Positions 492 to 19,025 of a stretch of 64,000 bases of DNA are shown here, piece by piece. Within the stretch, counting starts at the first letter, position 1, and every line of letters begins with the position of its first letter. Position numbers and translations under genes: made by a program. Source of the DNA: Seonamhaeicola algicola (GTDB lineage: Bacteria > Bacteroidota > Bacteroidia > Flavobacteriales > Flavobacteriaceae); NCBI RefSeq assembly GCF_007997385.1, contig NZ_VOSC01000005.1, forward strand, positions 62,001-126,000, written 5' to 3'. A model generated the notes under the pieces. It searched no databases, was not told the origin of the DNA, and saw only the letters and a program-made list of their open reading frames with translations.

Positions 492-494
492 ACC

Positions 495-812
495 ATGGAG
501 CAACCAAACTTATCATACATTAATACATTATCAGGAGGTGATAAAGCTTTTGAAACCAAACTTATAGGTATAATAAAGCAAGAATATCCTGAAGAGCGCG
601 ATGTTTATTTTAAAAATTTCAAGGCAAAAAATTACAAATTAGCAGCTGAAAATGTTCATAAATTAAAACACAAAATAAATATTTTGGGCTTAAATGAAAG
701 CTATAAAGTGGCTGAAAAATATGAACATAATTTAATTGATAATATTACCGAGGGGAAAGACGATTTTGCCAATATTCTGCAAGCAATCACTAACTTTCTT
801 AATGGTTTGTAA
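495..812 (+). CDS. Histidine phosphotransfer (Hpt) domain protein
   Basis: A 105-residue protein that consists only of an Hpt-like four-helix domain. The segment AENVHKLKHKINILGL resembles the HxLKG phosphorylation motif, with His55 as the predicted phospho-acceptor. The glycine of the motif is replaced by His, but the later Gly is kept. Hpt proteins carry phosphate between receiver domains of hybrid kinases and response regulators. It sits 3 bp behind the histidine kinase and is almost certainly co-transcribed with it. Likely partners in this window are the LytTR regulator at 2009 and the receiver-glycosyltransferase fusion at 17093; that pairing is inference. Confidence 0.8.
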   Translation: MEQPNLSYINTLSGGDKAFETKLIGIIKQEYPEERDVYFKNFKAKNYKLAAENVHKLKHKINILGLNESYKVAEKYEHNLIDNITEGKDDFANILQAITNFLNGL

Positions 813-2751: not shown

Positions 2752-2819
2752 CATTCGTCTACACTTATCTTTCATTTACCGAAGTTAATCTAAAAAAAAT
2801 TAAGTTTAAACTAATTTTA
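2752..2819 (+). promoter_or_regulatory. Predicted LytTR site pair and -7 box upstream of the gene at 2839
   Basis: Direct repeats CATTCGTCTA (2752-2761) and CATTTACCGA (2773-2782) are 21 bp apart, start to start. A TAATTTTA box (2812-2819), close to the Bacteroidota -7 consensus TAnnTTTG, begins 30 bp after the second repeat. The same arrangement recurs at four other promoters in the window. Assignment to the LytTR regulator at 2009 is inferred from spacing and proximity. Confidence 0.7.
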
Positions 2820-2838
2820 TGACACCAAATCGAGTGTC

Positions 2839-5415
2839 ATGAAAAGAATTCTACTTTTATTATTAATTTATTCAACAAGTTTTTATGCTCAAAATGAGCC
2901 TTTTAACTGCGATTACAATGCGTATTTATTCCAATACAATGATGTTTATGCTATAGACTTAGCATCGGGTAATGCCTACCAAGTTGCAGCCGATGTTACA
3001 CCAGGTAATATAAATGCAGCCGCTTATAACCCTAAAGATGGTTATATATGGGGCTCATTAAGTTCGCCTTCAAAAACTATAGTTCGCATAGGTAAAAATT
3101 TTCAAACTACAACATATTACATAGATGAGCTTTCATCAGGAGGTAGATATATTGGCGATGTTAGTGCCACTGGTATTTATTATTTAAAAGGAGGCGGAAC
3201 AACTTACTATGCAGTAGATTTAGATCCGGAATCTGCAAACTTTGGTAAGCATCATCAAACACTAACCATGTCTCAAAATTTAAATATACATGATTGGGCT
3301 TTTAATGCTGTAGATGGCTTTTTATACACCGTTGAAAAAGGCACAAATATTTTATATAGAGTTAATGCCGAAACAGGTAATGTTATTAGTTTAGGAGAAG
3401 TGCCTATTCTAGCCGGATTAAATTACACATACGGAGCCGTATACTTTGATGCTTCTGGGCGTTTTTATGTATCAGCCAACCAAACAGGCACTATTTATGT
3501 TATACAAAGTGTTCAAGATTTAACAGGTAGCAATGCTATAAATTCTAATTTGTTTGCTTTTGGTCCTGCAAGTTCTCAAAATGACGGAGCAAGATGTCCA
3601 ACAGCACCAGTACCACAAGAAGATTGTATAAATGGTATTGATGATGACGGTGATGGTTTAGTAGATTGTGATGACCCTTCATGTTCAGGAACATTTACGT
3701 GTCCAATTATAACAGTATCTGCTTCTAGTGCCAATACCGGTGGTTTAGAAAGTAACAATAGATTATCTGAAAAAATAAGCAAAAGAAACTTTAACAGAGT
3801 TAAAAACAGTTATAAGTTTGATGTAAATACGGCAAAAAAAGTTAAAAAAAGTTCTAAATACGGAAAAAAAACAAGTAAAAATACAGGTGCTATTCAGTTA
3901 GAAGATTTAGTTCCTTTAGGAGTTGTTAGCGAGGATAGTGCAATAGAATCATCACCAAATGATTTAATTGGTATTACAAATGCAACCAATGTATATTCAG
4001 TAGATTACATAAAAAACAATGTTACTGCAGCTTCAATATTACTTTTAGAAACTCAAAACGGTGTTTATGAACATACTAAAGTAATTTGTGATAGATTATT
4101 GGGGGCTGAAATAATTTCTGTATCTACAATTGAAATTAGAGAACAGGCATTTATAAAAACATTGTTTAAAAATGTTGATGGAGGTGTTGAGTTTGTTTTA
4201 AGCTTAGCGGCCAAAAACGTAAATAATGGTAACGATTTTGAAATTGAAAGCCATTGGAATATAGATAAATACCAAAGTGGTGCCTCATTTTATAATTTTC
4301 AAATTTGGGCAAATTCATTAGATGATTTATATAGGTTAGGTGATGAAGTTTTAAATCTTTTAGAAGTACAAAAACCAATAGTTGGATACAACAACTCTAC
4401 ACCACCAACCGTGTTTATTAAAAAAGGAAAGTACCATAACGGTAAATTAGATTTGCAAATAGTAAACACAAACAGAACGCAAGCTGTAACTTTTGATGCA
4501 GGTGTTAGAGCTTCAGAAACTGAAACAGTAAATTACATTTCATCAAACATTGATTTATCTAGCGGAAGTTATATTTCTAATGTTGAAGTTGATGCGGGTA
4601 CTTTATTTGATGTAGGTTTTAGAATTGGCGATGGCGTTGCAACACCAGATGATTTATTTCTTTCTGATGGTTCTTGGGGTTATGATGATGCTGATGCAAC
4701 TGTTACCAATTATGCTGTAGAACCAAATACATTATCTTTTGATGATAACCAATTTGCTGTAGAGAGAAATTTATCTCTAGAGGCAACCACTAATAATTAT
4801 GTAGCTGCTTACAGATCATTAACAGCTAAATTTAGTCCAGTAAATTTAACAGCTTTTGATACTTTTAATTTTGAAGCTAAAGGTACTGGTAATATGGTTG
4901 TAAGACTTGTTAAAGAAGATATTAGCAATTGGGAAGAGCAATACAAAGTAACCATACCATTAACAAACACATTAACCAATTATAGTGTACCATTTAATAC
5001 CTTTTTATCGTCAACAGGAGCAGAGTTTGAAGCTAATGATGTGGTATCCATTGTATTTACAATGTTAGCTTATGGTGCAGAAGAAACTAAAAAAATGGAT
5101 TTAAAACAGTTACATTTTTCTAAAAGTAGTTTGTCGGATAGTCAAATTTCTGAAGAAGAAGGTGTTGTAACTACAGCAGTACCAAATCCAATGTTTAATA
5201 CAACAAATATAACATTTACAGCAAATGCCACAGAGCTAATAACATTAGATGTTTTTAACCAAGACGGACGTTTAGTTAAACAACTAGAGCACAACGCTAC
5301 TTACGGAAATAACCAAATTAAATTAGACCGAGGAAACTTAAGCTCTGGGCTGTATTTCTGTAAAATTAACAGTAAAGCAACCAATTATAAAACAGTGAAA
5401 TTAATAATAGAATAA
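2839..5415 (+). CDS. Large secreted protein with type IX secretion sorting domain
   Basis: An 858-residue protein with a signal peptide (about residues 1-18, ending SFYAQ). Residues ~20-255 form a propeller-like region with repeated short motifs such as YNPKDGYIW and FNAVDGFLY. A short Asp-rich segment follows (CINGIDDDGDGLVDCDD, possibly calcium binding). After a central region of unknown fold, residues ~630-760 look like a CIA30/CBM11-type beta-sandwich. The last ~75 residues are a type A T9SS C-terminal domain (VPNPMFNTTNITF, then LSSGLYFCKI). It is therefore expected to be exported and attached to the cell surface. Its promoter carries the LytTR-like repeats, so it may be a surface or matrix protein made together with the polysaccharide. 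Function otherwise unknown. Confidence 0.8.
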   Translation: MKRILLLLLIYSTSFYAQNEPFNCDYNAYLFQYNDVYAIDLASGNAYQVAADVTPGNINAAAYNPKDGYIWGSLSSPSKTIVRIGKNFQTTTYYIDELSSGGRYIGDVSATGIYYLKGGGTTYYAVDLDPESANFGKHHQTLTMSQNLNIHDWAFNAVDGFLYTVEKGTNILYRVNAETGNVISLGEVPILAGLNYTYGAVYFDASGRFYVSANQTGTIYVIQSVQDLTGSNAINSNLFAFGPASSQNDGARCPTAPVPQEDCINGIDDDGDGLVDCDDPSCSGTFTCPIITVSASSANTGGLESNNRLSEKISKRNFNRVKNSYKFDVNTAKKVKKSSKYGKKTSKNTGAIQLEDLVPLGVVSEDSAIESSPNDLIGITNATNVYSVDYIKNNVTAASILLLETQNGVYEHTKVICDRLLGAEIISVSTIEIREQAFIKTLFKNVDGGVEFVLSLAAKNVNNGNDFEIESHWNIDKYQSGASFYNFQIWANSLDDLYRLGDEVLNLLEVQKPIVGYNNSTPPTVFIKKGKYHNGKLDLQIVNTNRTQAVTFDAGVRASETETVNYISSNIDLSSGSYISNVEVDAGTLFDVGFRIGDGVATPDDLFLSDGSWGYDDADATVTNYAVEPNTLSFDDNQFAVERNLSLEATTNNYVAAYRSLTAKFSPVNLTAFDTFNFEAKGTGNMVVRLVKEDISNWEEQYKVTIPLTNTLTNYSVPFNTFLSSTGAEFEANDVVSIVFTMLAYGAEETKKMDLKQLHFSKSSLSDSQISEEEGVVTTAVPNPMFNTTNITFTANATELITLDVFNQDGRLVKQLEHNATYGNNQIKLDRGNLSSGLYFCKINSKATNYKTVKLIIE

Positions 5416-5445
5416 ATTAATAGCAACAGTTTATTTTTTAGAAAC

Positions 5446-5477
5446 AAAGGCAAAACTAACTAGTTTTGCCTTTTTTT
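5446..5477. terminator. Bidirectional intrinsic terminator
   Basis: The stem AAAGGCAAAAC/GTTTTGCCTTT has a 6-nt loop, with a T run on the plus side and an A run on the minus side. It lies between the convergent genes ending at 5415 (+) and 5476 (-) and can serve both. Confidence 0.85.
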
Positions 5478-5847
5478 ATAGTTTGTTTACAAGAGCTCGT
5501 GCTGCTACAGTATCATAAATTATTTTTAAGGTTTTTATTTTATTTTCAGCATTAAGTTCAATAATATCAACAACATCAAAAGTTACAATTTCATTGTTTT
5601 TTAGTGTCCATACGTAATTAAAATAGATAGCAAATTCATTTGTGTTGGTATTTTGAAAAACGCCTTTCAATTTTAATTTTGAATTTGATGTGTCATTTTT
5701 TAATTCATTATAAAATACTTCAGCTTTTTTAATACCGTAAATAGGTGAATCTACAATACCATTTGGGGTAAATAATTTTATAATACTGTCAACGTCACCA
5801 TGCTCTAAATAGGCAATGTACTTTTCAGAAATCTCGTTTGCAGTCAT
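5476..5847 (-). CDS. SnoaL/NTF2-like protein
   Basis: A 123-residue single-domain protein of the NTF2-like (SnoaL) type. It begins with a helix of the form EKYIAYLEHGDVDSIIKLF, then TPNGIVDSPIYG, and ends with a beta-sheet (KIKTLKIIYD). Such proteins are small cone-shaped folds that act as isomerases, hydrolases or ligand binders, so the fold does not settle the function. It is a single gene with its own terminator. Nothing nearby indicates a substrate. Confidence 0.7.
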   Translation of the reverse strand: MTANEISEKYIAYLEHGDVDSIIKLFTPNGIVDSPIYGIKKAEVFYNELKNDTSNSKLKLKGVFQNTNTNEFAIYFNYVWTLKNNEIVTFDVVDIIELNAENKIKTLKIIYDTVAARALVNKL

Positions 5848-5963
5848 AATTTTATGCTTTTAAAAGAGAACAAAACTAATAATTTGCAATTATAAATTGT
5901 GGTAATACTATTTAAGATTATTGCTAAACAGGCATGCCTTTGTTTCGTTATTAAAATGCATAA

Positions 5964-5992
5964 AAAACCTGCTAGTAGATTTAGCAGGTTAA
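5964..5992 (-). terminator. Intrinsic terminator after the TPR/beta-barrel gene
   Basis: A 9-bp perfect stem (AACCTGCTA/TAGCAGGTT, arms 5968-5976 and 5984-5992) with a 7-nt loop. Read on the minus strand it is followed by a run of T. It lies just downstream of the stop of the gene at 6025. Confidence 0.85.
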
Positions 5993-6024
5993 AATGGGTG
6001 TGAAATTTTAAAGCTTTTTTGGTA

Positions 6025-8094
6025 TTATTCTTCGTTCTTTTTAAAAATTGGTTTTTCTAAAAAATACCATTTAAAGCGCAAACCAATTTCATTAAACGTA
6101 AAACCAGCAGCAGTTGCAGAGGCTATATTACTACGCGTACCAAATAAATTAAGTTGACATCGTTCTGAGAATTTATAGCCTAATTTAGCTTGAACTCTGT
6201 AAGTACTTTGTTTTGGGTCTTTTTCAATAAATTGAATACCTGTTGCTGCAGTAAGTTCATAAAACCATTCTTTAGCTTTTGCAATACCATCTGTTTTAAT
6301 AAGATTTACAAAAATTTCGGCAGCATTAAACATTTCAGGACTAAAATATATAGTTGGTACTTGGTTTTTAAAGGTTATGTATTGGTAGTTTAATCCGGCC
6401 TTCAAAGAAGGTTTGCTTAAAATGTTGTAATACAATGAGGTGAATAATAGGTTTCTTGCATTATCATCATTTTGCCACGTGTAAAAATACTGTGTAAACC
6501 AACCAATATTAACGTTTGTACTTAAGCTGTAATTGGCGTAAATATTGTTCATCACTATTTGGCGGTCTAATAATTCGGCATTAAAACTTTGTATTTCACG
6601 CTTGTAGCCAACATCTAAAACTTGCAATTTCATGGGTTTAATATGCAATGAAACATCGGTTTCTAATTGTGTGTAAGCTTTATCATTAGCATTAGCAGCT
6701 GTAACACCCACAGTGCCGTTAAATGTAATATTAGGTAATAGTTGATAGCCTAAGCCAAAAGTAAAAGTATTTGAGTTTGCTTCATTATCAGTAACTTTAT
6801 TACTGGTTGTTCTGTAACCGTACGCAGCTTTTAACTTAAATTTGGTAGACATAGGAAACTCAATGCTGGTATTTACAGCATAGGCTTTGTTGTTACCATT
6901 ATCAAAAGAGTAGGAGGCTTTTGTTTCCCAAAAAGGTGTGAAATTTTTGTCTAAATTCTTAATAAAGTTTGAGGCATCTTTTTGTTTTTCATAAAACGTT
7001 AAAGTGTTATTTGCCCATTGGTAAGCATCTTGGTAACGACCAGTTGCTTTTAAAGCGTTTGCTTTACCTAAGTTGCCATCAAATGAGCTGCTATCTATTT
7101 CTAAAATACGGTTATAGTCTGCAATACTGTTTTTAAATTCACTTTTGTAAATATTTAAAGTAGCGCTTAGTGATAAAACCCAAGTCTGATTTGGCTTTTC
7201 TGTTTTAAGTTGATTTATTAAAGTATTAGCTTCTTTAAATTTTTTATTCCAAATTAAAGCCTGTATATAGCGTTCTTTTGTTTGGTTAACTATAAGCGTG
7301 TCTTTTACATTTGGTATGTCGTTAAAAGCTAATTTGCTTGTTTTTAAAGCATCTTTTTCTTTACCTTTTAAATGTTTTACAAGTGCAATGCCATTAAGTG
7401 CAGTGGTTTCACTTTTGGGCAATGTTTTAATTATTTGGTAGGTAGCTTCGGCTTCATCAAATTTTCCAGCAATAATGTATAGGTTGGCAAGGTTTAATAA
7501 AGTAGACTTATCATTATTAAAAAGCTCTAAATTCTTTTTAAGCAAGGTTTCAGCTTCATTATATTGTTGTGCTTGTTGTTTTTGGTAAGCATAGCCCAAA
7601 TAAATGTATTTTTTTGAAACCATAGCATTAGGGTTGCCAGGTGAAACTTCTAGAGCGTTGTTTACTTGTATAAGAGCTTGGTCATAAATTTTTAGGTTAG
7701 AAAGTGTGTTTGCGTACCCTAATAATGCCGCAAAACTTTTGTTGTTTTCTTTTAAAAGCTTTTCATAGTATACTTTGGCATCAGCAAAATTTGAACCCCA
7801 TAATAACGATTCGGCATAGTTTAATTTTACTTCAAAATCATTAGGATACACATCAAGTAATTCTGTGAATATAGTTACAGCTTTTGGGGCGTTTCCAGCT
7901 AACCCAACAGCTCTTCCGTAACAAAGTTTTGCAGTTTTATTCTTTGGGTATTCTTTTAAAATGTTGTTGAAAAAAACTTCGGCTTCGGGGTATTTACCAG
8001 TTTCTAATAATGTAAAGCCTTCTTGCATGTTTTGTGAAAAGCAAAAGGAATTAATTAATAAAAAAACTAATAAATATAGGTGTTTTTTAAGCAT
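6025..8094 (-). CDS. TPR protein with C-terminal outer-membrane beta-barrel (YaiO/PelB-like export pore candidate)
   Basis: A longer reading frame begins at 8133, but the start at 8094 gives a clean signal peptide (MLKKHLYLLVFLLINSFCFSQ), so that start is preferred; the mature protein is exported. Residues ~20-390 are tetratricopeptide repeats (for example YPEAEVFFNNILKEYPKN, FAALLGYANTLSNLKIYDQA). The last ~290 residues are alternating beta-strands ending in aromatic residues, typical of an outer-membrane barrel of the YaiO type. Periplasmic TPR plus barrel is the architecture of exopolysaccharide secretins such as PelB, PgaA and BcsC. It is divergent from the STAS/exporter operon and shares the control region at 8145-8175. 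Export of the local polysaccharide is inferred. Confidence 0.78.
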   Translation of the reverse strand: MLKKHLYLLVFLLINSFCFSQNMQEGFTLLETGKYPEAEVFFNNILKEYPKNKTAKLCYGRAVGLAGNAPKAVTIFTELLDVYPNDFEVKLNYAESLLWGSNFADAKVYYEKLLKENNKSFAALLGYANTLSNLKIYDQALIQVNNALEVSPGNPNAMVSKKYIYLGYAYQKQQAQQYNEAETLLKKNLELFNNDKSTLLNLANLYIIAGKFDEAEATYQIIKTLPKSETTALNGIALVKHLKGKEKDALKTSKLAFNDIPNVKDTLIVNQTKERYIQALIWNKKFKEANTLINQLKTEKPNQTWVLSLSATLNIYKSEFKNSIADYNRILEIDSSSFDGNLGKANALKATGRYQDAYQWANNTLTFYEKQKDASNFIKNLDKNFTPFWETKASYSFDNGNNKAYAVNTSIEFPMSTKFKLKAAYGYRTTSNKVTDNEANSNTFTFGLGYQLLPNITFNGTVGVTAANANDKAYTQLETDVSLHIKPMKLQVLDVGYKREIQSFNAELLDRQIVMNNIYANYSLSTNVNIGWFTQYFYTWQNDDNARNLLFTSLYYNILSKPSLKAGLNYQYITFKNQVPTIYFSPEMFNAAEIFVNLIKTDGIAKAKEWFYELTAATGIQFIEKDPKQSTYRVQAKLGYKFSERCQLNLFGTRSNIASATAAGFTFNEIGLRFKWYFLEKPIFKKNEE

Positions 8095-8144
8095 GATTTT
8101 GGGGTTGGTTTTATATAACTGCAAGTTAGGCATTACTTTTCAAT

Positions 8145-8213
8145 CATTCATCTACAGCAAATTGCCACTCACCGAAATAAAAGGTTTATTCACTGCAAGT
8201 TGGCTGATATTTG
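8145..8213 (+). promoter_or_regulatory. Predicted LytTR site pair and -7 box in a divergent promoter
   Basis: CATTCATCTA (8145-8154) and CACTCACCGA (8166-8175) are 21 bp apart. A GATATTTG box (8206-8213) starts 31 bp after the second repeat and faces the STAS gene at 8254. The repeats also lie 51 bp upstream of the minus-strand start at 8094 and could act on both genes, but no good -7 box is placed for that direction. The 5' leader TAACCCC plus AAATATTA near 8233-8247 recurs before the gene at 19054. Confidence 0.7.
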
Positions 8214-8253
8214 TGTTAAACAGATGAAATAATAACCCCAAATATTATGAATT

Positions 8254-8529
8254 ATGGCTCTTAAAATTAAAGAAAATAATGGAATTTATTTTGCAGAAGG
8301 TACTATTAATGCATCAACGTCATTCAACTTATTAACTCATTTAAATCATTTAATTAATAGCGAAAAAAGTTTAACGCTAAATTTAGATTTAGTAAAAAAC
8401 ATTGATAATAATGGCGTGTTTGCTATTTACAAAGCATATAAAAATGCTTTAATAAAAAATGTGAATTTCAAACTCACCGGAAAAAAAAGTAACGCTATTT
8501 TAAAGCAGTTTAACATTAATAAAGCATAA
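8254..8529 (+). CDS. STAS-domain protein
   Basis: A 91-residue protein whose pattern (short beta-strands, SLTLNLDLVKNIDNNGVFAIYKAYKNA, then a final helix) fits a stand-alone STAS domain of the anti-sigma antagonist type. The usual phosphorylatable Ser in the DxSG position is replaced (NIDNNGV), so regulation by a partner-switching kinase is doubtful. It is the first gene of a probable operon with the exporter 15 bp downstream, behind the LytTR-like repeats. A role in scaffolding or regulating the export complex is possible but not shown. Confidence 0.65.
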   Translation: MALKIKENNGIYFAEGTINASTSFNLLTHLNHLINSEKSLTLNLDLVKNIDNNGVFAIYKAYKNALIKNVNFKLTGKKSNAILKQFNINKA

Positions 8530-8544
8530 TTTAAAAGTGTAGTT

Positions 8545-9801
8545 ATGCAAATTTTAGCAGTTTTAAAATCTAGAAAAATAACACCAGAGCAAATATTTAT
8601 GCTTAGTGTTTTACTTGTAAATGGCGGTAATTACCTGTATAATTTAATACTAGGGCGCATATTGGGGCCCGCACAATTTGCTGATGCCGCTGTGTTAATT
8701 ACATTTTTATTGGTACTATCATTTGCAGCTATGACGTTTCAGTTAGTAACTGCAAAATTTTCAGTATTATTTGAAAATGATGTTCTTGGTAATTTTGTAA
8801 CTAAAATTTATAAACAAGCTTTATTAGTAGGTGTGTTAATGGGTATTGCTATTGTGGTGTTTTCTAAACAGCTGCAAATAGTATTTAATACATCGTCATC
8901 AAATATGTTTGTAATTTTTGGTGTAGGTGTGCCTTTGTATTTTTTAATGAGCGTAAACCGTGGTGTTTACCAAGGTAAAAAAGCGTTTAAAAATTTATCA
9001 ATAACCTATCAACTAGAAATGTTGAGTAGGTTACTTATTACTTTAGGTATTATATTTTTGCTTAACATACAATCTTCAGTAGTTATTGCTATTGGTATAT
9101 TATTGTCTTTTGCCTTTGGTTTAATACCATTTAAATTCAGTTTATTAAACTTTAAAGGACATATTTCGCTTTCAGAAACACAAACAAAAAACATACGTAA
9201 CTTTTTTGTAATTACTGCATTTTATGAGTTAACCCAAATTATAATTAACAATAGTGATATATTATTGGTTAAACATTATTTTGAATCATACGAAGCCGGA
9301 TTATACGCATCATTAGCATTAATTGGGCGTATAGTTTATTTTATAGCGTGGATGTTTGTAATGCTACTGTTACCAACTGTTGTTCAACAGAAAAAAGACG
9401 GATTAGATACAGCACCAACATTGTTTAAATACGTAGGCTATATTGCAGCTATTTCTACAACCATAGTTTTGGTTTGCTCAATAATGCCACAAACTATAAT
9501 AACTATACTATTTGGTAAAAGTTATATAGCAATGGCACCTTTGTTATGGAAATACGCCATTGCAACATCAATGTTTGCCATTTCTAACATATTTGCATAT
9601 TACTATCTGTCTTTAGATAAATATATACCAGTTGTAATTTCAGGCATATTTGGTGTGCTTCAAATAGCTTTAGTTGTTTTTTATCATGAAAGTTTAGCAC
9701 AAGTTGTTCACGTTCAAATAATCGCAATGTTTTTGTTATTATGCATTCAACTGGTGTTTTTTAAACTAAGCCATAATAAAAAAGCGGTTAGTCTAAAGTA
9801 A
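8545..9801 (+). CDS. Polysaccharide flippase/exporter, MOP superfamily (Wzx/PelG-like)
   Basis: A 418-residue integral membrane protein with about 12 hydrophobic segments. The N-terminal segment (YNLILGRILGPAQFADAAVL) has the LGxxLGPxxFG-like signature of the polysaccharide transporter family. These proteins move lipid-linked or nascent polysaccharide across the inner membrane. It follows the STAS gene closely and precedes the GT4 gene, consistent with a role in exporting the product of the local glycosyltransferases. The substrate cannot be read from sequence. Confidence 0.85.
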   Translation: MQILAVLKSRKITPEQIFMLSVLLVNGGNYLYNLILGRILGPAQFADAAVLITFLLVLSFAAMTFQLVTAKFSVLFENDVLGNFVTKIYKQALLVGVLMGIAIVVFSKQLQIVFNTSSSNMFVIFGVGVPLYFLMSVNRGVYQGKKAFKNLSITYQLEMLSRLLITLGIIFLLNIQSSVVIAIGILLSFAFGLIPFKFSLLNFKGHISLSETQTKNIRNFFVITAFYELTQIIINNSDILLVKHYFESYEAGLYASLALIGRIVYFIAWMFVMLLLPTVVQQKKDGLDTAPTLFKYVGYIAAISTTIVLVCSIMPQTIITILFGKSYIAMAPLLWKYAIATSMFAISNIFAYYYLSLDKYIPVVISGIFGVLQIALVVFYHESLAQVVHVQIIAMFLLLCIQLVFFKLSHNKKAVSLK

Positions 9802-9806
9802 ATTAC

Positions 9807-9875
9807 CACTGGTCTACACTAAAAGCTGCTTAGTCTATATCTGCCAAAATATTAAATAAATAAGCCCCAATTTTA
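9807..9875 (+). promoter_or_regulatory. Predicted LytTR site pair and -7 box upstream of the GT4 gene
   Basis: CACTGGTCTA (9807-9816) and GCTTAGTCTA (9828-9837) are 21 bp apart. CAATTTTA (9868-9875) begins 31 bp after the second repeat. This is the weakest -7 match of the five promoters, but the spacing is identical, and it lies in the 98-bp gap before the GT4 gene. Confidence 0.6.
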
Positions 9876-9899
9876 CAATAAATAAAACCACTATTAATT

Positions 9900-11117
9900 A
9901 TGAAATTAGCAATTGTAACAGCGTATCCGCCAAGTAAAGTAACGTTAAATGAGTATGCTTACCATTTGGTTAAACACTTTGCACAAAAAGAGGATATAAG
10001 CGAAATAGTTTTGTTAACAGATAAAACTGAAGGAGAAAAAGATATCAATTTTGATAAAAATGGCTGCAAAATTACAATTAATGAATGTTGGGCTTTTAAC
10101 AACTATAAAAATATTTTAAGTGTTAACAAAGCATTAAAACAAGAAAAACCAGATGCTGTATTGTTCAACTTACAATTTATGAAGTTTGGTGATAAAAAAG
10201 TAGCAGCAGCTTTAGGTTTAATGTTGCCACTAGTTTGTAAACTTAAAAAAATACCAAACATAGTGTTATTACATAATATACTTGAAGAAGTAGATTTAGG
10301 TAGCGCAGGTTTTACAAGTAATAAGTTAATGCAGAAAATTTATGGTTTTATTGGAAGCACATTAACACGTTTAATTTTACAAGCCGATACCGTTGCCGTA
10401 ACAATGCAAAAATATGTAGATATTTTACAAGCTAAATACAAAGCAAATAATGTAAAATTAATACCTCACGGAACTTTTGAAATTCCAGAAGAACCAAATT
10501 ATGCAATACCTGATGGCCCTAAACAAATTATGACATTTGGTAAGTTTGGTACCTACAAAAAAGTTGAAGGCATGATTGAAGCTGTTGAAAAAGTTCGTGC
10601 CAAAACAGGATTAAATTTAGAAGTTGTAATAGCAGGAACCGATAACCCAAATGTACCAGGATACTTAGCCGGTGTTAAAGAAACTTACAAAAATGTACCT
10701 AAACTACGTTTTACCGGTTATGTTGAAGAAGAAGAAGTACCCGTACTATTTAATGAAAGTACTGTTGTTGTATTTCCATATACATCAACCACAGGAAGTT
10801 CTGGTGTATTACACCAAGCCGGAAGCTATGGTAAAGCCGTTGTAATGCCAGATTTAGGTGATTTAGCTCTATTAGTGCAAGATGAAGGTTACAGAGGCGA
10901 ATTTTTTAACCCAACAAGCGTTGAAAGTTTAGCGCTTGCTATTGAAAGAATTGTAACAGATGAAGACTATAGGGTAACCTTAGGTAAAGCTAATTACAAA
11001 GCGGCAACCTCACACCCAATGTCTCAAATTACCGAAATGTATTTAAACACATTTAAAAGTATTATAGCCCGCAAATCTCCAGATAAAATTATAAAAGGAA
11101 AAGAAGTTATTGTTTAG
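9900..11117 (+). CDS. Glycosyltransferase family 4 (GT-B fold)
   Basis: A 405-residue glycosyltransferase. The N-terminal Rossmann-like half starts KLAIVTAYPPSKVTLNEYA. The C-terminal half has the GT4 pattern: KLIPHGTFE, then MTFGKFGTYKKVEGMIEA, FTGYVEEEEVPVLF, and the acceptor-side PYTSTTGSSGVLHQAGSYGK with the position of the usual EGFGLP glutamate replaced. Such enzymes retain anomeric configuration and use nucleotide sugars. PelF is a GT4 enzyme placed next to a PelG flippase, as here. Its 3' end overlaps the convergent glycosidase gene by 11 bp. Confidence 0.88.
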   Translation: MKLAIVTAYPPSKVTLNEYAYHLVKHFAQKEDISEIVLLTDKTEGEKDINFDKNGCKITINECWAFNNYKNILSVNKALKQEKPDAVLFNLQFMKFGDKKVAAALGLMLPLVCKLKKIPNIVLLHNILEEVDLGSAGFTSNKLMQKIYGFIGSTLTRLILQADTVAVTMQKYVDILQAKYKANNVKLIPHGTFEIPEEPNYAIPDGPKQIMTFGKFGTYKKVEGMIEAVEKVRAKTGLNLEVVIAGTDNPNVPGYLAGVKETYKNVPKLRFTGYVEEEEVPVLFNESTVVVFPYTSTTGSSGVLHQAGSYGKAVVMPDLGDLALLVQDEGYRGEFFNPTSVESLALAIERIVTDEDYRVTLGKANYKAATSHPMSQITEMYLNTFKSIIARKSPDKIIKGKEVIV

Positions 11118-12642: not shown

Positions 12643-13867
12643 ATAAATCTTTAGTGTATTCTTTAGTAATACCAGCCGCTTTTATTTTAAAATTATAAGT
12701 GTCATTTGGTAAATAATGTGTTTCTAAATATATGCTGCTAACACCGTTTTTGGTGGTTGTATTTTTTGTTTCAATAAAATTACCTTTTTTATCATAAATA
12801 TCAATTTTAACTAAAATACCATCGGGTACTAACTGTTTCATAAAACTTTTAAAAGGACCAATAACTAGTTTTCTGTTGTTTTCATAAAATTGAATAGGAT
12901 AATCTTTTATAGCTGCTTCAAAATTAAAATTAATAGTGTTGCTTTCGGCAGCACCTGTTATAAAGGCTTTAATAGTCCATTTTGCTGCATAATCAGGGTG
13001 CAGTGTTCTAGTTTCGGCTATACCACTAATAGTAGTACCAACAGTATTTAAGTAAGCACCTTTTTCGTCTTTAATTATAAAATTAACCAAGGTGCCATCA
13101 CTAACTGTATTACCATATTTATCTTTAATAATGTTGGATTTAAAGGTTATAATTTGATTACCATCGGCATAATTATGAGCACTTGATGCTGTAATTTTAA
13201 AGTCTTCAGCGTTTGAAGGGAACACTATGGTAGTTAATTCTTTTGATGTTGTACCGTTACTTTCTGAAGTTACTAAAATTCTGCCCGCTTTTGTGGTAGA
13301 CCTTACATTGTACCATGCAATAAAATTATTGGTATTAAGCGAGGTTTCGTTTATGTTTTTTTGAAATTGATACTTTACGGTTACCTGTGTGCTATCATCA
13401 ACAGGATTATCATAAATATCGGTAGGTACAACCGTAAGCATGGAGTAGTCGTTATAACCAGCGGTTATACTTCTTGGTCCAAAATAAGTTTCTACATGTG
13501 TTTTGTTTTTAGTATTGGTTTCAATATATAATTTACCTTTTAAAAGGGGTATGTTTTGGTGTAATAATTTCCAATGTAAGTTGCCTGCTAATCGGCAGTA
13601 ATTTTTAGGAATATTAAAAGAAGCTAAAGCTGTATTTGTAGTGTCTTTTTTTATAATAACGCTGCCAAAGGCATTTTTAAGCAGAAGCTTTAATGGGGCG
13701 TTATTATTTGATGTTTTAAATTTTAAATTAATAGGGCTTCCTGCAATAAAATTAGTTTGTGTTGTTTGTAATGAAACCTTAGGGTTTTGCACGTTTTTAC
13801 TAGGTTGTTCTTTTTTTGAAGTACAACCAATGCATATAAATAGTGCTAATATTAAACCTAATTTCAT
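12632..13867 (-). CDS. Secreted lipoprotein with Ig-like (invasin/bacterial Ig) domains
   Basis: The start at 13867 is preferred over 13903: it gives a short lipoprotein signal (MKLGLILALFICIGC) with the lipidated Cys at residue 15, and it lies 1 bp after the preceding stop. The mature part has beta-sandwich repeats with phrases such as VPTDIYDNPVDDSTQVTV and SNIIKDKYGNTVSDGTLV, typical of Ig-like domains of the invasin/Big_1 kind. It has no catalytic motif. It sits between the GT-C-like protein and the glycosidase and probably belongs to the same envelope complex. Confidence 0.72.
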   Translation of the reverse strand: MKLGLILALFICIGCTSKKEQPSKNVQNPKVSLQTTQTNFIAGSPINLKFKTSNNNAPLKLLLKNAFGSVIIKKDTTNTALASFNIPKNYCRLAGNLHWKLLHQNIPLLKGKLYIETNTKNKTHVETYFGPRSITAGYNDYSMLTVVPTDIYDNPVDDSTQVTVKYQFQKNINETSLNTNNFIAWYNVRSTTKAGRILVTSESNGTTSKELTTIVFPSNAEDFKITASSAHNYADGNQIITFKSNIIKDKYGNTVSDGTLVNFIIKDEKGAYLNTVGTTISGIAETRTLHPDYAAKWTIKAFITGAAESNTINFNFEAAIKDYPIQFYENNRKLVIGPFKSFMKQLVPDGILVKIDIYDKKGNFIETKNTTTKNGVSSIYLETHYLPNDTYNFKIKAAGITKEYTKDLYGN

Positions 13868-13868
13868 A

Positions 13869-16800
13869 TTATTTGGGGTTACCAATGTAACTGTTAATTT
13901 CAAATTTTATAAATGCATAACCATTGCCTTTATATGGTTGTATTTGGTTTGGCCCATGGTTATAAATTCTATTGGGTAACACTTTTTCGGCCACTGCTTT
14001 ATTGGGTAAGCCGTTAACATAACAGTTTTCTAAACTACTATTAATTATGGTTAAACTATCTAAACTTACAGGTTTATAATTAAAAAATTGCTTGCGTTGA
14101 ATACGCACACCTTCCGGAATAAACTTGTGGTCTACCCAAAGTAATTCGGCATCTTCATTGTAATAAGATACAATTAACTGCGGAATGGTAACTTCTTGCA
14201 CGCCATGGTTAAATAAAACGCCATTAATACCTTGGTTTGTAAATTCTAAACTTTGTAGGGCAACTTGCTTGTATAAATCGGTATTGGCTGTATTTCCGGC
14301 AGATTGTAGGTTGAATTTTGTGGGTTGTTCTTCAAAATTTAATGGTGTAAACTCATCAGGATTAAACGTTGGCGGAATGGTGTCTTTTGTTGATGACCAC
14401 GCTATACCTTCAAAATTAATTTTAAAAGTTGTAGTTTCTTTGGGCATTAATTTATGTTTAATATGGTGTTTAGCGTTATAGTTAGCCAATTCTTTATTAT
14501 TATCATTGTACAAAGTGGCTTTTATAACAACATCGGCCGGTGAGTTATCTACGTTTTGTAGCTCGCCAATAATACTATATTGCCCTTTATTTTTAACCAA
14601 TTTAGCCGAAAGAATTTCTAAAACAGGTTGTTTTAATACGTCTTCGTGATAGGTTTCTTGCGTGGTTATTTTACGCCTTCCGTGGTTATAAAAAGTAGTT
14701 GTGTTTTGCGTGAATAATTGATCGGGCGGTATATCATTATCAAATTTTGAAGGTTTAATATACCATTTACCTTTTTGTTTAATAAGTTCATGGTAATTGG
14801 TGTGTTGCACTTTTTCTAAAGGTGTTATCCAGTTTGTTGCCACTTTTGCCTTGGCGCTATTTTTAGTAACATCAAACACTTCAATACCTAAAGAATCCAT
14901 TTTTGCATACGAACTTAAAATACCATCGGTAACTGATACTTCAAGCATATATTGTGCAATAGTTACATTGCTATCAGGATCTAAATAAGAATGTGCGCGG
15001 TTAAACTCTTTAAAATCTAAGGCATCATAATAAGCGGTTAATACATTTTTTGGAGATAGCTGCGTTGTGTTTTTCACATAAAATAAATAAATACCATAAC
15101 CAATACAAGCTAGTACAATTACCGCCCAAAAATGTGAGAATATTAAAAGTTTAGATGGGAATTTTTTATACTGAAGTTCAAAAGATTTAAACGGCGATTT
15201 TTCAACTTTTTTAGATTTTAACAGTCGTATCCAAATCATTTGAATATTAATAAAGAAAGCTATTAATACAGTAGTAATAGGGATAATGCCCCACATAATT
15301 TTCATTACCGTTGGTACATCTTGTTTCGGCATTATTTGTGGAATTGGCGCAACATTAAGTTTTTCCCAAACCATAATACCATTTTCTAGCTGTTGTAACC
15401 GTTGCCAACCGCAGTAATATAAAATAGGATCATAAAACTTATCATTTGAAAAAATGTATTTTAAATTATATTTTTCGGGAACAGTTAAAAATTGTTGTAA
15501 AGAGCCTATGCCTTCAACACCTCTAAATTTTGAGTTTTCAATGCGTTCAATGGCACGTGTGGTAAGCTCAGGTAAACGTCTTGCAGAATGGTAATTTCCA
15601 TCTACAGTCATAGCATTGGTTTGGGCAGATAACCATGCCATTTGATCGCCAAATCCTAAAGGTAAATAACGCCAAGAGTCGTGTGAATCGGCGCCTAAAA
15701 AGTTAACAATAGGTAGCATATTAATTTGTGCCGGTTGCGATGGCCTAAAATAGCTCAACGTCATGGTGAATATTACCATAAAAAGCATACCACCTGCAAT
15801 TAAACCACCCAATACTCTGTGATACACTTCGCCAAACTTTTTTTGCACCAAGGTTTTTAAATCGCCTTCAACCATACGATAACCAAATTCTGCAAAAATT
15901 GGTAAAGCCATAATAGTTGCCCAAAGCGTGAACCTATCTAAAGTTAAAATATTAAAAGCAGTTTCACCTAAAAGCATTAAAGGCACAGGAGTGGTTCCGC
16001 CAGTACCTAAAATGGTTAACATAGTGAAAGATAAACCAAAAAAAAGGTAGCGTTTGCTATAATATCTATAAAAAAAGTAGGGTAGAATAAACAGTAAAAC
16101 TCCCCATGGAATTAAAAAAAACACTAAACCTGAAGAGGTTACTTCTAAAAAATTGTCTCTAGAGCCATGCGGTATAGGTACTTGGGTAATAGGGTTGCGT
16201 TTTGAGTTATACCAATACGGAAAAATGCAAAATACAATTAAAAACAAACCGCTACCACCAAAAGTAGCAATACGCCAAAAGTGTTTAAGTGTAGTACGCC
16301 AAAATACTTTAAAAGTAAGTTCTTTATATGAGTTTACTTGTTCTCTTGATGCATCCATTACTACCATGCCTATAAGCGGTGCTAAAAAGAAAACCATACC
16401 AAAAATAGGTGTAACATGGTGGCAGGTAACAGTAACAGCCAGCATTGAAACCGATGTTAAAAAGTATTTTAATTTACCTGTTTTTATATACAAGTAAATT
16501 TCTACCATAGAGTGCATTAATACAGATAGGGCAACAATGCTGGGTAATTGACCAAAAATATGGAGGGTTTCAACAAAAGTAGATGAAAACACAGCTAAAA
16601 CAGAGCCGTAACCAGCAATTCTTCGGCTACCTGTCATTAATAATGTATAACGGTAAGCGCCAGTTATAAAAAGTACAATACCAATTAATGCTACGGTATA
16701 CATACCAAATTTAAGGCCACCAATGTATGATAATAATGCAATAGATTGGTGTACTAAAGGCGGGTACGATTGTACTGTAAAACCAGTGTACCAGCGGTAT

Positions 16801-16961
16801 TCCCAAGGGTCAAACCAACTATCGGCGTAGCTATCAGCAAAAAATAAATGTATTAAAGCATCGTACGTATATTCTAAAGTAAAAAAGATTGCCGACCCAT
16901 GAAACGCAATACCTACAATTAAAGCAAGAATTAAAAGTGTATTGGTTTTTTCGGTTTTCAA
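13869..16961 (-). CDS. Large GT-C-like polytopic membrane protein with periplasmic NTF2-like and FxLYD-like domains
   Basis: A 1030-residue protein; the start is TTG, and no ATG lies between it and the first membrane helix. Residues 1-420 hold about 10 membrane segments. The first periplasmic loop carries acidic and aromatic residues (YTYDALIHLFFADSYAD, then FDPWEYRW and YPPLVH), as in GT-C transferases that use polyprenyl-phosphate sugars. Further helices lie near residues 565 and 615. After these come an NTF2-like domain (about 635-750) and an FxLYD-like beta domain (PVLEILSAKLVKNKG onward), both extracytoplasmic. It heads the operon with the lipoprotein and glycosidase. Transfer of a lipid-linked sugar onto the polymer is inferred. 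It is divergent from the receiver-GT2 fusion. Confidence 0.72.
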   Translation of the reverse strand: MKTEKTNTLLILALIVGIAFHGSAIFFTLEYTYDALIHLFFADSYADSWFDPWEYRWYTGFTVQSYPPLVHQSIALLSYIGGLKFGMYTVALIGIVLFITGAYRYTLLMTGSRRIAGYGSVLAVFSSTFVETLHIFGQLPSIVALSVLMHSMVEIYLYIKTGKLKYFLTSVSMLAVTVTCHHVTPIFGMVFFLAPLIGMVVMDASREQVNSYKELTFKVFWRTTLKHFWRIATFGGSGLFLIVFCIFPYWYNSKRNPITQVPIPHGSRDNFLEVTSSGLVFFLIPWGVLLFILPYFFYRYYSKRYLFFGLSFTMLTILGTGGTTPVPLMLLGETAFNILTLDRFTLWATIMALPIFAEFGYRMVEGDLKTLVQKKFGEVYHRVLGGLIAGGMLFMVIFTMTLSYFRPSQPAQINMLPIVNFLGADSHDSWRYLPLGFGDQMAWLSAQTNAMTVDGNYHSARRLPELTTRAIERIENSKFRGVEGIGSLQQFLTVPEKYNLKYIFSNDKFYDPILYYCGWQRLQQLENGIMVWEKLNVAPIPQIMPKQDVPTVMKIMWGIIPITTVLIAFFINIQMIWIRLLKSKKVEKSPFKSFELQYKKFPSKLLIFSHFWAVIVLACIGYGIYLFYVKNTTQLSPKNVLTAYYDALDFKEFNRAHSYLDPDSNVTIAQYMLEVSVTDGILSSYAKMDSLGIEVFDVTKNSAKAKVATNWITPLEKVQHTNYHELIKQKGKWYIKPSKFDNDIPPDQLFTQNTTTFYNHGRRKITTQETYHEDVLKQPVLEILSAKLVKNKGQYSIIGELQNVDNSPADVVIKATLYNDNNKELANYNAKHHIKHKLMPKETTTFKINFEGIAWSSTKDTIPPTFNPDEFTPLNFEEQPTKFNLQSAGNTANTDLYKQVALQSLEFTNQGINGVLFNHGVQEVTIPQLIVSYYNEDAELLWVDHKFIPEGVRIQRKQFFNYKPVSLDSLTIINSSLENCYVNGLPNKAVAEKVLPNRIYNHGPNQIQPYKGNGYAFIKFEINSYIGNPK

Positions 16962-16996
16962 TAGTAGTATAATTTTATTTATCTATACAAATCGGT

Positions 16997-17065
16997 CATT
17001 CGTCTAAGCTAATCCTAGACTTTAGCTAAATTAAAATTTTTCTGAGACTTCGCATAGTATTTTTA
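16997..17065 (+). promoter_or_regulatory. Predicted LytTR site pair and -7 box upstream of the receiver-GT2 fusion
   Basis: CATTCGTCTA (16997-17006) is identical to the first repeat at 2752. The second, weaker copy ACTTTAGCTA (17019-17028) is 22 bp on. TATTTTTA (17058-17065) begins 30 bp later. The site lies between the divergent starts at 16961 (-) and 17093 (+); the geometry fits the plus-strand gene. Confidence 0.65.
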
Positions 17066-17092
17066 CACTGTAAACAACAAAACTCCCAAGTC

Positions 17093-18283
17093 ATGAAAAT
17101 TTTAGCAATTGATGATCAGCAGCTAGTGCTCCTACCACTAGAAAAAAGATTAAAAGAATTAGGTTATGATGTAAAAATAGAAACCGATGCCAAAAAAGGC
17201 CTTTCTACTTTTGATGCTTTTAACCCTAATTTAGTTATTGTTGATATAAATATGCCTTATGTTTCTGGTTTAGAAATTGTAAAATACATAAGAAGCTCAA
17301 AAAATCCTGATACACAAATTATGGTTTTATCAGGAAATACACAAGATAATATTATAACTGAAGGTTTTGATTTAGGTATAAGTGATTATATGAAAAAGCC
17401 TTTAAGTTTAAATGAAATTACAGCAAGAATAAAACGTTTAATTGGCCAGCCAAATATTGCGGTAGCTAACAATTCGTCATCAAATGCTGTTATACAACAA
17501 CGTTGTGTTGGGGTAGTTATACCGTGTTATAATGAAGAAGAACGTTTATTAAGTAAAGAATTTACAGATTACATACAAAAACACACGGGGTATCATTTAT
17601 GTTTTGTTAATGATGGAAGTAAAGATGGTACGTTAGAAGTTTTAAATAATTTGCGTAAAGGTCGTGAAGATTTTATAACAGTGTACGATTGTGAGAAAAA
17701 TGGAGGTAAAGCCGAAGCTGTAAGACTTGGCATGTTACACATGGCTAAAAAAGAAGATTTAGATTACATAGGTTTTCTTGACGCCGATTTGTCTACAGAT
17801 TTATCAGATTTTGATGATTTAGTAACAACTATTGAAAATTCAAACTTCAAAATAGTTAGTGGCTCTAGAATTAGCAGAATGGGTGCAAATATTACCAAAG
17901 AATCTGCTAGAAAAATTATAAGTATGACTATTAACTATATAATTAGAAAAATTTTAGGTATGAATTTTAAAGACACGCAATGTGGCGCCAAAATTTTTAG
18001 TAAAGATGTTATACAAATAGCATTCAGAGAAAAGTTTGTTACGCAGTGGATTTTTGATGTAGAAATATTTAAAAGAATGGCAGGCTATTTTGGTACTGAA
18101 AAAGCAAAAAGCCTAATATGTGAACAACCATTAAAACGTTGGATACATGCTGATGGATCAAAGTTATCAATGAAAGATTCTATAAAAATTGTAATGCAGT
18201 TAGGGCAAATAGCTTGGGTGTACCGTAAAAAGAACTTAAAAAAATATAAAAGTCAGCAAGTTGAGTATACGTTACACTCTTAA
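17093..18283 (+). CDS. Response-regulator receiver fused to a DPG-synthase-like GT2 glycosyltransferase
   Basis: A 396-residue fusion. Residues 1-118 are a complete receiver: acidic pair Asp7/Asp8, phospho-acceptor Asp51 (VIVDINMP), Ser80 (VLSGN) and Lys102 (KKPL). Residues ~137-370 are a GT2 domain of the dolichyl-phosphate glucose/mannose synthase type: VVIPCYNEEERL, FVNDGSKDGT, the DxD motif Asp230-Ala-Asp232 (FLDADLSTD), ISRMGANITKE and DTQCGAKIF. No membrane helix is seen, as in soluble-domain family members. Family enzymes transfer glucose or mannose from a nucleotide sugar to a polyprenyl phosphate. The receiver has no DNA-binding output, so phosphorylation probably controls the transferase itself. 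It is followed by a half-length GT2 paralogue. Confidence 0.92.
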   Translation: MKILAIDDQQLVLLPLEKRLKELGYDVKIETDAKKGLSTFDAFNPNLVIVDINMPYVSGLEIVKYIRSSKNPDTQIMVLSGNTQDNIITEGFDLGISDYMKKPLSLNEITARIKRLIGQPNIAVANNSSSNAVIQQRCVGVVIPCYNEEERLLSKEFTDYIQKHTGYHLCFVNDGSKDGTLEVLNNLRKGREDFITVYDCEKNGGKAEAVRLGMLHMAKKEDLDYIGFLDADLSTDLSDFDDLVTTIENSNFKIVSGSRISRMGANITKESARKIISMTINYIIRKILGMNFKDTQCGAKIFSKDVIQIAFREKFVTQWIFDVEIFKRMAGYFGTEKAKSLICEQPLKRWIHADGSKLSMKDSIKIVMQLGQIAWVYRKKNLKKYKSQQVEYTLHS

Positions 18284-18297
18284 TTTAAAAAGAGGAA

Positions 18298-18789
18298 ATG
18301 AAATTAGGTTTAATAATTATTTTTAATAACAACGAAACCAGCTTAAATAGTACATTTTTTAATGAGTTACTACACATAGCAAATAATTTTGAGTTATGCC
18401 TAGTAAATAATGGAAGTAATGATGCAACCTTAGAGAAACTTCTAGATTTAAAAGATTTATTTGAGTCTCAAATAACCGTTGTAGATATAAAGAAAAAGCA
18501 AGCTTTAGAAGCTGCAAATAAAGCAGGAGCAAGGTATTTATTAAACAAAGGTTCTTTAAAACACATAGGTTATATAAATGTGAATGATTTAAGTAATATT
18601 CAGCATTTAAATAAAATATTAGCTGCATTTAACAAAAGTAAACAACAAGTTATAATGCATAATTTAAGTGTGTTAAAAAGCAATCAAAATACTAGAGTAA
18701 CAGTAAAAAATATTTTTTCAATATTAAAGTATTTTAGTGTATTAAAATTAAAAGTTAAAGATTATAGTTTGAATGAATTAGTGAATTAA
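18298..18789 (+). CDS. Half-length degenerate GT2-like protein
   Basis: A 163-residue protein that resembles only the nucleotide-binding half of the neighbouring GT2 domain: GLIIIFNNNETSL, CLVNNGSNDATLEKLL (against FVNDGSKDGTLEVL) and HIGYINVNDLSN (against YIGFLDADLST). The aspartates of the donor-binding and DxD motifs are replaced by Asn, and the acceptor half is missing. It has a normal stop and a terminator downstream, so it is not a sequencing frameshift of a longer gene. A good purine-rich site (AGAGGAA) precedes its ATG, 14 bp after the fusion gene. It is probably a pseudo-enzyme partner; function unproven. Confidence 0.7.
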   Translation: MKLGLIIIFNNNETSLNSTFFNELLHIANNFELCLVNNGSNDATLEKLLDLKDLFESQITVVDIKKKQALEAANKAGARYLLNKGSLKHIGYINVNDLSNIQHLNKILAAFNKSKQQVIMHNLSVLKSNQNTRVTVKNIFSILKYFSVLKLKVKDYSLNELVN

Positions 18790-18846
18790 AAATATGGTGT
18801 TTTTTGTTTATTGGTAAGTTGATTTTTTAAATCAATTACAACCACT

Positions 18847-18879
18847 GAGGCCTTACAGTAATGTGAGGCCTCTTTTTTT
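18847..18879 (+). terminator. Intrinsic terminator after the receiver-GT2 operon
   Basis: A 10-bp stem with one G-U pair (GAGGCCTTAC/GTGAGGCCTC), a 6-nt loop and a run of seven T. It ends the two-gene operon 17093-18789. Confidence 0.88.
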
Positions 18880-18956
18880 ATGCAAGAAACTGTATTTGAT
18901 AGTATTCAAATAATCGATAAAATACAGGCTTAAATGCTTTGTTTATAATTTTATAC

Positions 18957-19025
18957 AACTCATCTACACATAAGCTTCATTCGCCTAAAAATAGTAATGC
19001 TGCCTCTTGTTGTGGTGTATATTTG
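18957..19025 (+). promoter_or_regulatory. Predicted LytTR site pair and consensus -7 box upstream of the gene at 19054
   Basis: AACTCATCTA (18957-18966) and CATTCGCCTA (18978-18987) are 21 bp apart. A perfect TATATTTG box (19018-19025) starts 31 bp after the second repeat. The leader contains TAACCCC followed by AAATATTA, as before the STAS gene at 8254, so the two promoters look like relatives. Confidence 0.72.

What the first reader, a model, noticed from the sequence alone, without database searches (positions are those of the whole stretch)
2752..19025. Five promoters share a LytTR-like tandem repeat with fixed geometry
Pairs of ~10-bp direct repeats (consensus near CATTYRYCKA) occur at 2752/2773, 8145/8166, 9807/9828, 16997/17019 and 18957/18978. 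The period is 21 bp in four cases and 22 bp in one. In every case a TAnnTTTR-like -7 box starts 30-31 bp after the second copy, on the same strand as the downstream gene. LytTR regulators are known to bind two direct repeats about two helical turns apart, and a LytTR response regulator lies at 2009. This defines a compact local regulon: T9SS protein, STAS/exporter, GT4, receiver-GT2 and an unknown protein.
Basis: partly seen in the sequence, partly recalled or inferred. Interest (0 to 1): 0.85.

Follow-up and report, generated by a model that had tools for sequence, protein, structure and literature searches.

The report
LytTR operators driving a polysaccharide locus
Five promoters in this bacterium carry the same paired DNA tag at a fixed distance from the transcription start box, and in many relatives the tag accompanies one particular regulator gene and its gas-sensor-type signalling genes, so one signalling system very probably controls a polysaccharide-making gene set.

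Summary
All five repeat pairs are at the stated coordinates, with a -7-like box 30-31 bp after copy 2; copy 1 lies 60-61 bp from that box in all five. The receiver-GT2 promoter has a third copy at 16976. A model built only from other genomes ranks four of the five sites 1, 2, 3 and 5 in the 3.7-Mb genome; it misses the fifth, 16997. Comparative evidence supports the LytTR reading. Of 199 family genomes, 72 of 82 with an ortholog of the LytTR protein at 2009 have the motif, against 4 of 117 without it (phylogeny not corrected), although 20 of 21 genomes lacking both carry other LytTR proteins. Sites recur before STAS/flippase, GT4 and GT2 orthologs and before the sensor operon receiver-H-NOX-kinase-(FIST-kinase)-Hpt-like-LytTR, which lies mostly left of the window. 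In two GT2-less relatives examined the same operators precede other polysaccharide genes. The regulon is thus wider than proposed. Binding, direction of control and nitric-oxide input are inferred, not shown. The operator architecture is a known LytTR kind; nine literature searches listed no paper on this regulon.

The parts
2009..2731 (+). LytTR response regulator, proposed binder of the operators
   Evidence: Pfam LytTR 2.1e-21 and Response_reg 4e-19; Asp53 and Lys99 invariant in 29 of 29 aligned sequences
2752..2785 (+). operator pair before T9SS-sorted secreted protein (copies 2752, 2773)
   Evidence: rank 2 in genome with model R2, E 2.8e-7
2812..2819 (+). -7-like box TAATTTTA
2839..5415 (+). 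T9SS-sorted secreted protein, regulon gene
   Evidence: Por_Secre_tail 2.2e-11
8145..8178 (+). operator pair before STAS/flippase (copies 8145, 8166)
   Evidence: rank 1 in genome, E 3.8e-12 with R2
8206..8213 (+). -7-like box GATATTTG
8254..8529 (+). STAS protein
   Evidence: PF01740 3.3e-6
8545..9801 (+). polysaccharide flippase-like membrane protein
   Evidence: PF13440 1.6e-10
9807..9840 (+). operator pair before GT4 (copies 9807, 9828)
   Evidence: rank 5 in genome, E 1.6e-4 with R2
9868..9875 (+). -7-like box CAATTTTA
9900..11117 (+). GT4 glycosyltransferase
   Evidence: PF00534 3e-19
16976..17031 (+). three-copy operator before receiver-GT2 (copies 16976, 16997, 17019)
   Evidence: third copy also seen in many relatives
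17058..17065 (+). -7-like box TATTTTTA
17093..18283 (+). receiver domain fused to GT2 glycosyltransferase
   Evidence: Response_reg 3.2e-22, Glycos_transf_2 7.5e-22
18957..18990 (+). operator pair before unknown 131-aa protein (copies 18957, 18978)
   Evidence: rank 3 in genome, E 1.8e-6 with R2
19018..19025 (+). -7-like box TATATTTG
19054..19449 (+). unknown 131-aa protein, regulon gene also in two same-genus relatives (G002, G003)
   Evidence: sites in L253 and L259; tblastn 34% and 44% identity; no Pfam family
150..812 (+). 3' end of sensor operon: histidine kinase end (150-491) and Hpt-like protein (495-812)
   Evidence: Hpt match only E 0.095
942..1883 (+). UDP-sugar epimerase/decarboxylase-type enzyme between Hpt-like gene and LytTR
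   Evidence: PF16363 4.8e-55

Best explanation
The repeat pairs are operators of the LytTR response regulator encoded at 2009-2731. The regulator binds two imperfect 10-13-bp direct repeats (best copy YCATTCRTC(T/G)ACA, second copy weaker, near CATTCRYC(T/G)AAA) two helical turns apart, just upstream of the sigma-A promoter, and activates transcription. If the -7 box occupies -12 to -5, as reported in Flavobacterium, copy 2 lies near -52 to -43 and copy 1 starts near -73. Two promoters (receiver-GT2 and, outside the window, the sensor operon) carry a further copy 21 bp upstream, presumably for stronger or more cooperative binding. The regulator is the last gene of an operon-like run with a free receiver, an H-NOX haem protein, two histidine kinases, a FIST protein and an Hpt-like protein, and that run carries the operator too, so the system is probably autoregulated. 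Shown: the sites, their geometry, conservation and co-occurrence with this LytTR ortholog. Inferred: binding by this protein, activation rather than repression, phosphorylation through the operon's kinases, and nitric oxide as a signal.
For: Four of five window sites are ranks 1, 2, 3 and 5 genome-wide with a model lacking all window sites (150 of 11975 first-look candidates scored). 112 sites >=17 bits in window plus 48 loci, all on the + strand of the locus; 85 of 112 have the box at the expected offset, and most of the other 27 are, by my reading, the upstream pair of three-copy arrays. With gap free between 19 and 24, 102 sites >=22 bits have gap 21 (85) or 22 (17); 79 boxes lie 60-62 bp and 17 lie 82 bp from copy 1 (the box was not used in that matrix, the gap was). 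LytTR ortholog in 38 of 38 receiver-GT2 genomes searched. Motif in 72 of 82 LytTR genomes against 4 of 117 others; among genomes without the GT2 17 of 26 against 4 of 116. In the own genus G001, G002, G003, G005 have both, G004 and G006 neither. Other LytTR proteins exist in 20 of 21 genomes lacking both. LytTR is the only DNA-binding domain that Pfam finds in the sensor operon and in the window's cargo. In single-contig genome G166 LytTR and GT2 are 2.3 Mb apart yet two sites lie 7-9 kb before the GT2, as for a trans-acting factor. LytTR sites are 9-11-nt repeats with 11-13-nt spacers (PMC4847170, passages); AlgR's core CCGTTCGTC (PMC4064291, passages) differs by one base from CCATTCGTC and occurs exactly in the own sensor-operon operator.
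Against: No binding or expression data. Ten of 82 LytTR genomes have no motif at E<=1e-4 and four genomes have a motif without the ortholog at the cut (G137 is a cut-off miss; G009 looks spurious; G115 and G224 unexplained); the family scan scored only 24 candidates per genome, so weak sites may be missed. Co-occurrence counts are not corrected for common descent. The 16997 site is not recovered by the independent model. Training sites came from loci chosen by GT2 homology. Seven of the 38 genomes have a second close LytTR copy (59-78% identity), so the ortholog is not always unique. The AlphaFold model of the regulator was poor (mean pLDDT 60.8) and gave nothing.
Confidence: 0.86

Rival explanations
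1. The repeats are operators of a different DNA-binding protein (another LytTR paralog or an unrelated factor) that happens to co-occur with the locus.
For: The own genome has three LytTR-type matches at E<=1e-30; no binding has been shown; G115 and G224 have motif hits (one and two) without the ortholog, only paralogs at 35-39% identity.
Against: The motif follows this ortholog even when the GT2 is absent (17 of 26 against 4 of 116). Other LytTR proteins are present in 20 of 21 genomes that lack both motif and ortholog. No other DNA-binding domain was found in the operon or the window's cargo.
Confidence: 0.1
2. The five promoters are recent duplicates of one promoter, so the likeness reflects descent and not regulation.
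For: All five lie within about 16 kb and on the same strand. In G137 about 238-bp units with the site really are tandem copies.
Against: Only the repeats and the -7 box are alike; the spacer between copy 2 and the box is not conserved. The STAS, GT4 and GT2 promoters are conserved each before its own ortholog across many genera, and sites occur at loci unlinked to LytTR.
Confidence: 0.02
3. Chance resemblance in AT-rich intergenic DNA.
For: Single half-sites are not enriched; two of five sites drop just below a non-site in leave-one-out.
Against: 73 against 0 hits in reversed relatives; genome-wide ranks 1, 2, 3 and 5 with an independent model.
Confidence: 0.01
4. The regulator binds there but acts as a repressor, or as a switch between both states.
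For: No expression data; LytTR AlgR is reported both to activate and to repress (PMC4064291, passages).
Against: The operators end near -43, upstream of the core promoter at constant distance, as is usual for activators (inference).
Confidence: 0.15

Closest known systems
LytTR operators of AlgR (Pseudomonas aeruginosa)
   Same: Half-site CCGTTCGTC nearly equals YCATTCRTC and is found exactly in the own sensor-operon operator; both involve exopolysaccharide genes (PMC4064291 passages)
   Different: AlgR sites are not necessarily direct repeats at fixed spacing; here the pair, its period and its distance to the -7 box are fixed
YpdB / AgrA-type tandem LytTR sites
   Same: Two repeats with an 11-13-nt spacer (PMC4847170 passages)
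   Different: Different half-site; an extra copy in two promoters; coupled to a Bacteroidota -7 promoter
H-NOX/kinase biofilm control in Proteobacteria
   Same: Haem NO-binding protein gene next to histidine kinase genes, biofilm-type output (papers seen only in search listings with abstract openings)
   Different: Here the only DNA-binding output found in the operon is a LytTR regulator, with FIST and Hpt-like genes, in Flavobacteriaceae

Membership tests
LytTR-regulated operators | two imperfect direct repeats of about 9-11 nt with 11-13-nt spacer (period about 20-24) | tested here: met
   periods 21 or 22 in all five and in 102 of 102 sites >=22 bits (matrix trained on gaps 21/22, so partly circular)
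LytTR-regulated operators | cognate LytTR protein encoded and co-occurring | tested here: met
LytTR-regulated operators | protein binds the repeats | not testable with these tools
   needs gel shift or DAP-seq
LytTR response regulator family | receiver plus LytTR domain | tested here: met
   Pfam E 4e-19 and 2.1e-21; Asp53 and Lys99 invariant in 29 of 29
Bacteroidota sigma-A promoter | TAnnTTTG-like -7 box | tested here: met
   present in five of five, but four of five depart from the strict TAnnTTTG at one or two bases; consensus from PMC9723704 (passages)
H-NOX | HNOB domain | tested here: met
   PF07700 E 3.7e-41; a YxSxR haem motif (recalled) is visible in the sequence
H-NOX | binds NO and signals to the neighbouring kinase | not testable with these tools
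   needs biochemistry
Hpt phosphotransfer protein | Hpt domain | tested here: inconclusive
   E 0.095, below cut-off

The most novel reading that the evidence does not exclude
A nitric-oxide-sensing H-NOX/FIST phosphorelay controls an exchangeable surface-polysaccharide locus at two levels at once. Its LytTR regulator switches on the cargo promoters through one operator of fixed geometry. The same relay also phosphorylates receiver domains fused to sugar transferases of the cargo (receiver-GT2 here, receiver-Bac_transf in G100). Across Flavobacteriaceae the cargo is swapped while the operator tag is kept, and in some species it includes small RNA genes.
Probability: 0.3. Interest if true: 0.78.

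Novelty: new variant of a known kind. Interest (0 to 1): 0.62.

Why it matters
Flavobacteriaceae are described as a major but understudied family of soil, marine and fresh water (abstract opening of PMC9723704). This regulon has a motif sharp enough to be found in 76 of 199 genera scanned, a named candidate regulator, a probable gas-sensor input and a clear output, so it can be tested by one deletion and one binding assay. The constant copy-1-to-box distance also suggests where an activator sits on a Bacteroidota promoter. The motif gives a way to read which polysaccharide genes a species has placed under this control.

Tried and rejected
Single half-site search of the genome: not enriched, rejected as a test. 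AlphaFold of LytTR with an alignment of 29 sequences: low confidence, not used. PDB sequence search for a DNA-bound LytTR template: only weak matches to the DNA-binding half in what was shown, so contact residues were not mapped. Rfam on loci with candidate small RNAs: no family there except one tRNA elsewhere, and none in window 1-22000. Promoter duplication and chance were considered and rejected (see rivals). Site C27:5037 in the own genome (rank 5 with R1, 4 with R2) lies about 330 bp before a large secreted-protein gene, without the standard -7 spacing by eye; not counted as a member. G009's hit has no gene mapped downstream on its strand nearby; treated as spurious. In G037 (50% identical LytTR) no site was found in the 10 kb around LytTR (L267), though two hits lie elsewhere.
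Full report
CHECK OF THE OBSERVATION. The five pairs are at 2752/2773, 8145/8166, 9807/9828, 16997/17019 and 18957/18978, with -7-like boxes starting at 2812, 8206, 9868, 17058 and 19018, 27-48 bp before the start codon of the next gene on the same strand. Measured from copy 1 the box is 60, 61, 61, 61 and 61 bp away; at 16997 the 22-bp period is offset by a spacer one base shorter, so copy 1 rather than copy 2 holds the more constant distance. The receiver-GT2 promoter has a further copy at 16976, 82 bp (61+21) from its box. Leave-one-out matrices: the left-out sites 2752, 8145 and 18957 beat every non-site in the window; 9807 and 16997 come just below an intragenic match at 47564 (-). Single half-sites are not enriched in the genome.

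RELATIVES. A scan with the receiver-GT2 protein gave 80 loci, of which I used 48 (L032-L079); the other 32 match only part of the protein at 27-40% identity. The matrix from the five window sites gave 73 hits at >=19 bits and none in the reversed sequences, 111 against 17 at >=16. Hits lie before STAS/flippase, GT4 and receiver-GT2 orthologs, not in every locus. With a refined matrix, 112 sites >=17 bits were found in window plus 48 loci, all on the + strand of the locus; 85 have the box at the expected place, and most of the other 27 are the upstream pair of three-copy arrays. In a scan with free gap (19-24), 102 sites >=22 bits had gap 21 (85) or 22 (17); 79 boxes lay 60-62 bp and 17 lay 82 bp from copy 1. 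The matrix had been trained on gaps 21 and 22, so the gap count is partly circular; the box distance is not.

GENOME-WIDE SPECIFICITY. Model R1 (77 sites, sequence only) ranks the five window sites 1, 2, 3, 4 and 6 in the 3.7-Mb genome, but five of its 77 sequences are those sites. Model R2, without them (72 sites), ranks 8145, 2752, 18957 and 9807 as 1, 2, 3 and 5; at 16997 it shows only a shifted partial match (E 0.52). In both searches 150 first-look candidates were scored (of 12959 and 11975).

WHICH REGULATOR. The LytTR protein at 2009 has an ortholog in 38 of 38 genomes with a receiver-GT2 locus that I searched, the own genome and 37 of the 48 loci's genomes (59-81% identity in the others). 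In 31 of the 38 the next match is about 42% or less; seven have a second close copy (59-78%). Among 59 relatives, own genome included, 16 of the 19 with a LytTR match at 1e-55 have a motif hit at E<=1e-5 (not G008, G017, G058), against 1 of the 40 without; in the own genus G001, G002, G003 and G005 have both and G004 and G006 neither. Among 199 family genomes, one per genus in the tally, 72 of 82 with LytTR (E<=1e-70) have a motif hit (R2, E<=1e-4, 24 candidates scored per genome), against 4 of 117 without. One of the four, G137, has a 57%-identical LytTR at 1.9e-70 with a site 116 bp downstream. Among genomes without the GT2 the figures are 17 of 26 against 4 of 116. LytTR domains as such are no substitute: 20 of 21 genomes that lack both ortholog and motif have other LytTR proteins (the 21 are G004, G006 and 19 ortholog- and motif-negative genomes named in the lists). 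None of this is corrected for common descent. LytTR and GT2 are within 35 kb on one contig in 43 of 56 genomes that have both; in G190, one of the other 13, a second GT2 copy is about 7 kb from LytTR, and in most of the 13 the two lie on different contigs of draft genomes. In the single-contig genome G166 they are 2.3 Mb apart and two sites lie before the GT2, as expected of a factor acting in trans. Pfam finds no other DNA-binding domain in the operon or the window's cargo.

THE WIDER SYSTEM. Directly left of the window lies an operon-like run of a free receiver, an H-NOX protein (PF07700, 3.7e-41), a PAS-GAF histidine kinase, a FIST protein, a second kinase and an Hpt-like protein, followed by a UDP-sugar enzyme and LytTR (Hpt by weak match only). 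Its promoter, at G000:C28:57139, carries ACCGTTCGTCGACAC with a -7-like box 82 bp away by my count. I mapped 21 genomes with this run, own included, chosen because they had motif hits, so they show position and not frequency. A site (>=17 bits, >=18) precedes the run in 20 of 21 (not G137), a site lies within about 1 kb after LytTR in 18 of 21 (not G001, G015, G016), and an H-NOX gene is found by blastp in 19 of 21 (not G011, G181); these are my counts. In two GT2-less genomes, G100 and G149, a site precedes a UDP-glucose dehydrogenase gene, and in G100 a receiver fused to a bacterial sugar transferase lies further along. In the own genome, G002, G005, G137 and G181 the module lies between genes of nitrate-assimilation type (molybdopterin oxidoreductase with redox domains; a rubredoxin/nitrite-sulfite-reductase-type protein) and a moaA-type gene (Pfam of the own copies; positions; the nitrate role itself is recalled).

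MECHANISM. Given a -7 box at -12 to -5 (PMC9723704, passages), copy 2 lies near -52 to -43 and copy 1 starts near -73, a usual activator position. I therefore propose that phosphorylated LytTR binds cooperatively and recruits RNA polymerase. Activation, phosphorylation by the operon's kinases and NO as signal are inference.

COMPARISON AND NOVELTY. Two repeats with an 11-13-nt spacer are the standard LytTR architecture (PMC4847170 and PMC4064291, passages), so the operators are a known kind. What I did not find described is this half-site in Bacteroidota, the fixed coupling to the -7 box, the third copy, the H-NOX operon as source, and the exchangeable cargo. Literature searches of the open-access library listed no paper on this regulon; I read passages of four papers only (PMC4064291, PMC4847170, PMC9723704, PMC6769237), and subscription papers are mostly not held, so this is weak evidence of absence.

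Noticed in passing
L274 7861, 9441, 9679, 9917; L261 10816, 11445; L262 16763, 18326: Operators followed, before any ORF of 80 aa, by a short stretch ending in a hairpin and T-run; in G137 three such units are about 238-bp tandem copies. Candidate small RNA genes under the same control; no Rfam family.
   Followed up: partly
L275 15272-16459: A second receiver-sugar-transferase fusion (Response_reg plus Bac_transf) in an alternative cargo cluster, parallel to the receiver-GT2 of the window.
   Followed up: no
window 20043-22002 and L031 99-4927: The signalling module and cargo lie between nitrate-assimilation-type genes and molybdenum-cofactor genes in several genomes, a possible link between nitrate use and NO sensing.
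   Followed up: partly
G011, G016, G025 and others: GT2 relatives matching only the transferase part (no receiver) occur in otherwise similar loci; in G011 an operator still precedes it (L263).
   Followed up: no
G000:C27:5037-5094 (-), L195: High-ranking motif match (E 2.6e-5) about 330 bp before a large secreted-protein gene, without the standard -7 spacing.
   Followed up: partly
L265 10284 and L266 8900: The operator after LytTR in these two genomes leads to a very short ORF with a membrane-peptide look instead of the T9SS protein (by eye).
   Followed up: no
G066:C2:151227 and C2:340122: Two equally scoring LytTR copies on one contig of the Tamlana nanhaiensis genome; six other genomes also have a second close copy.
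   Followed up: no
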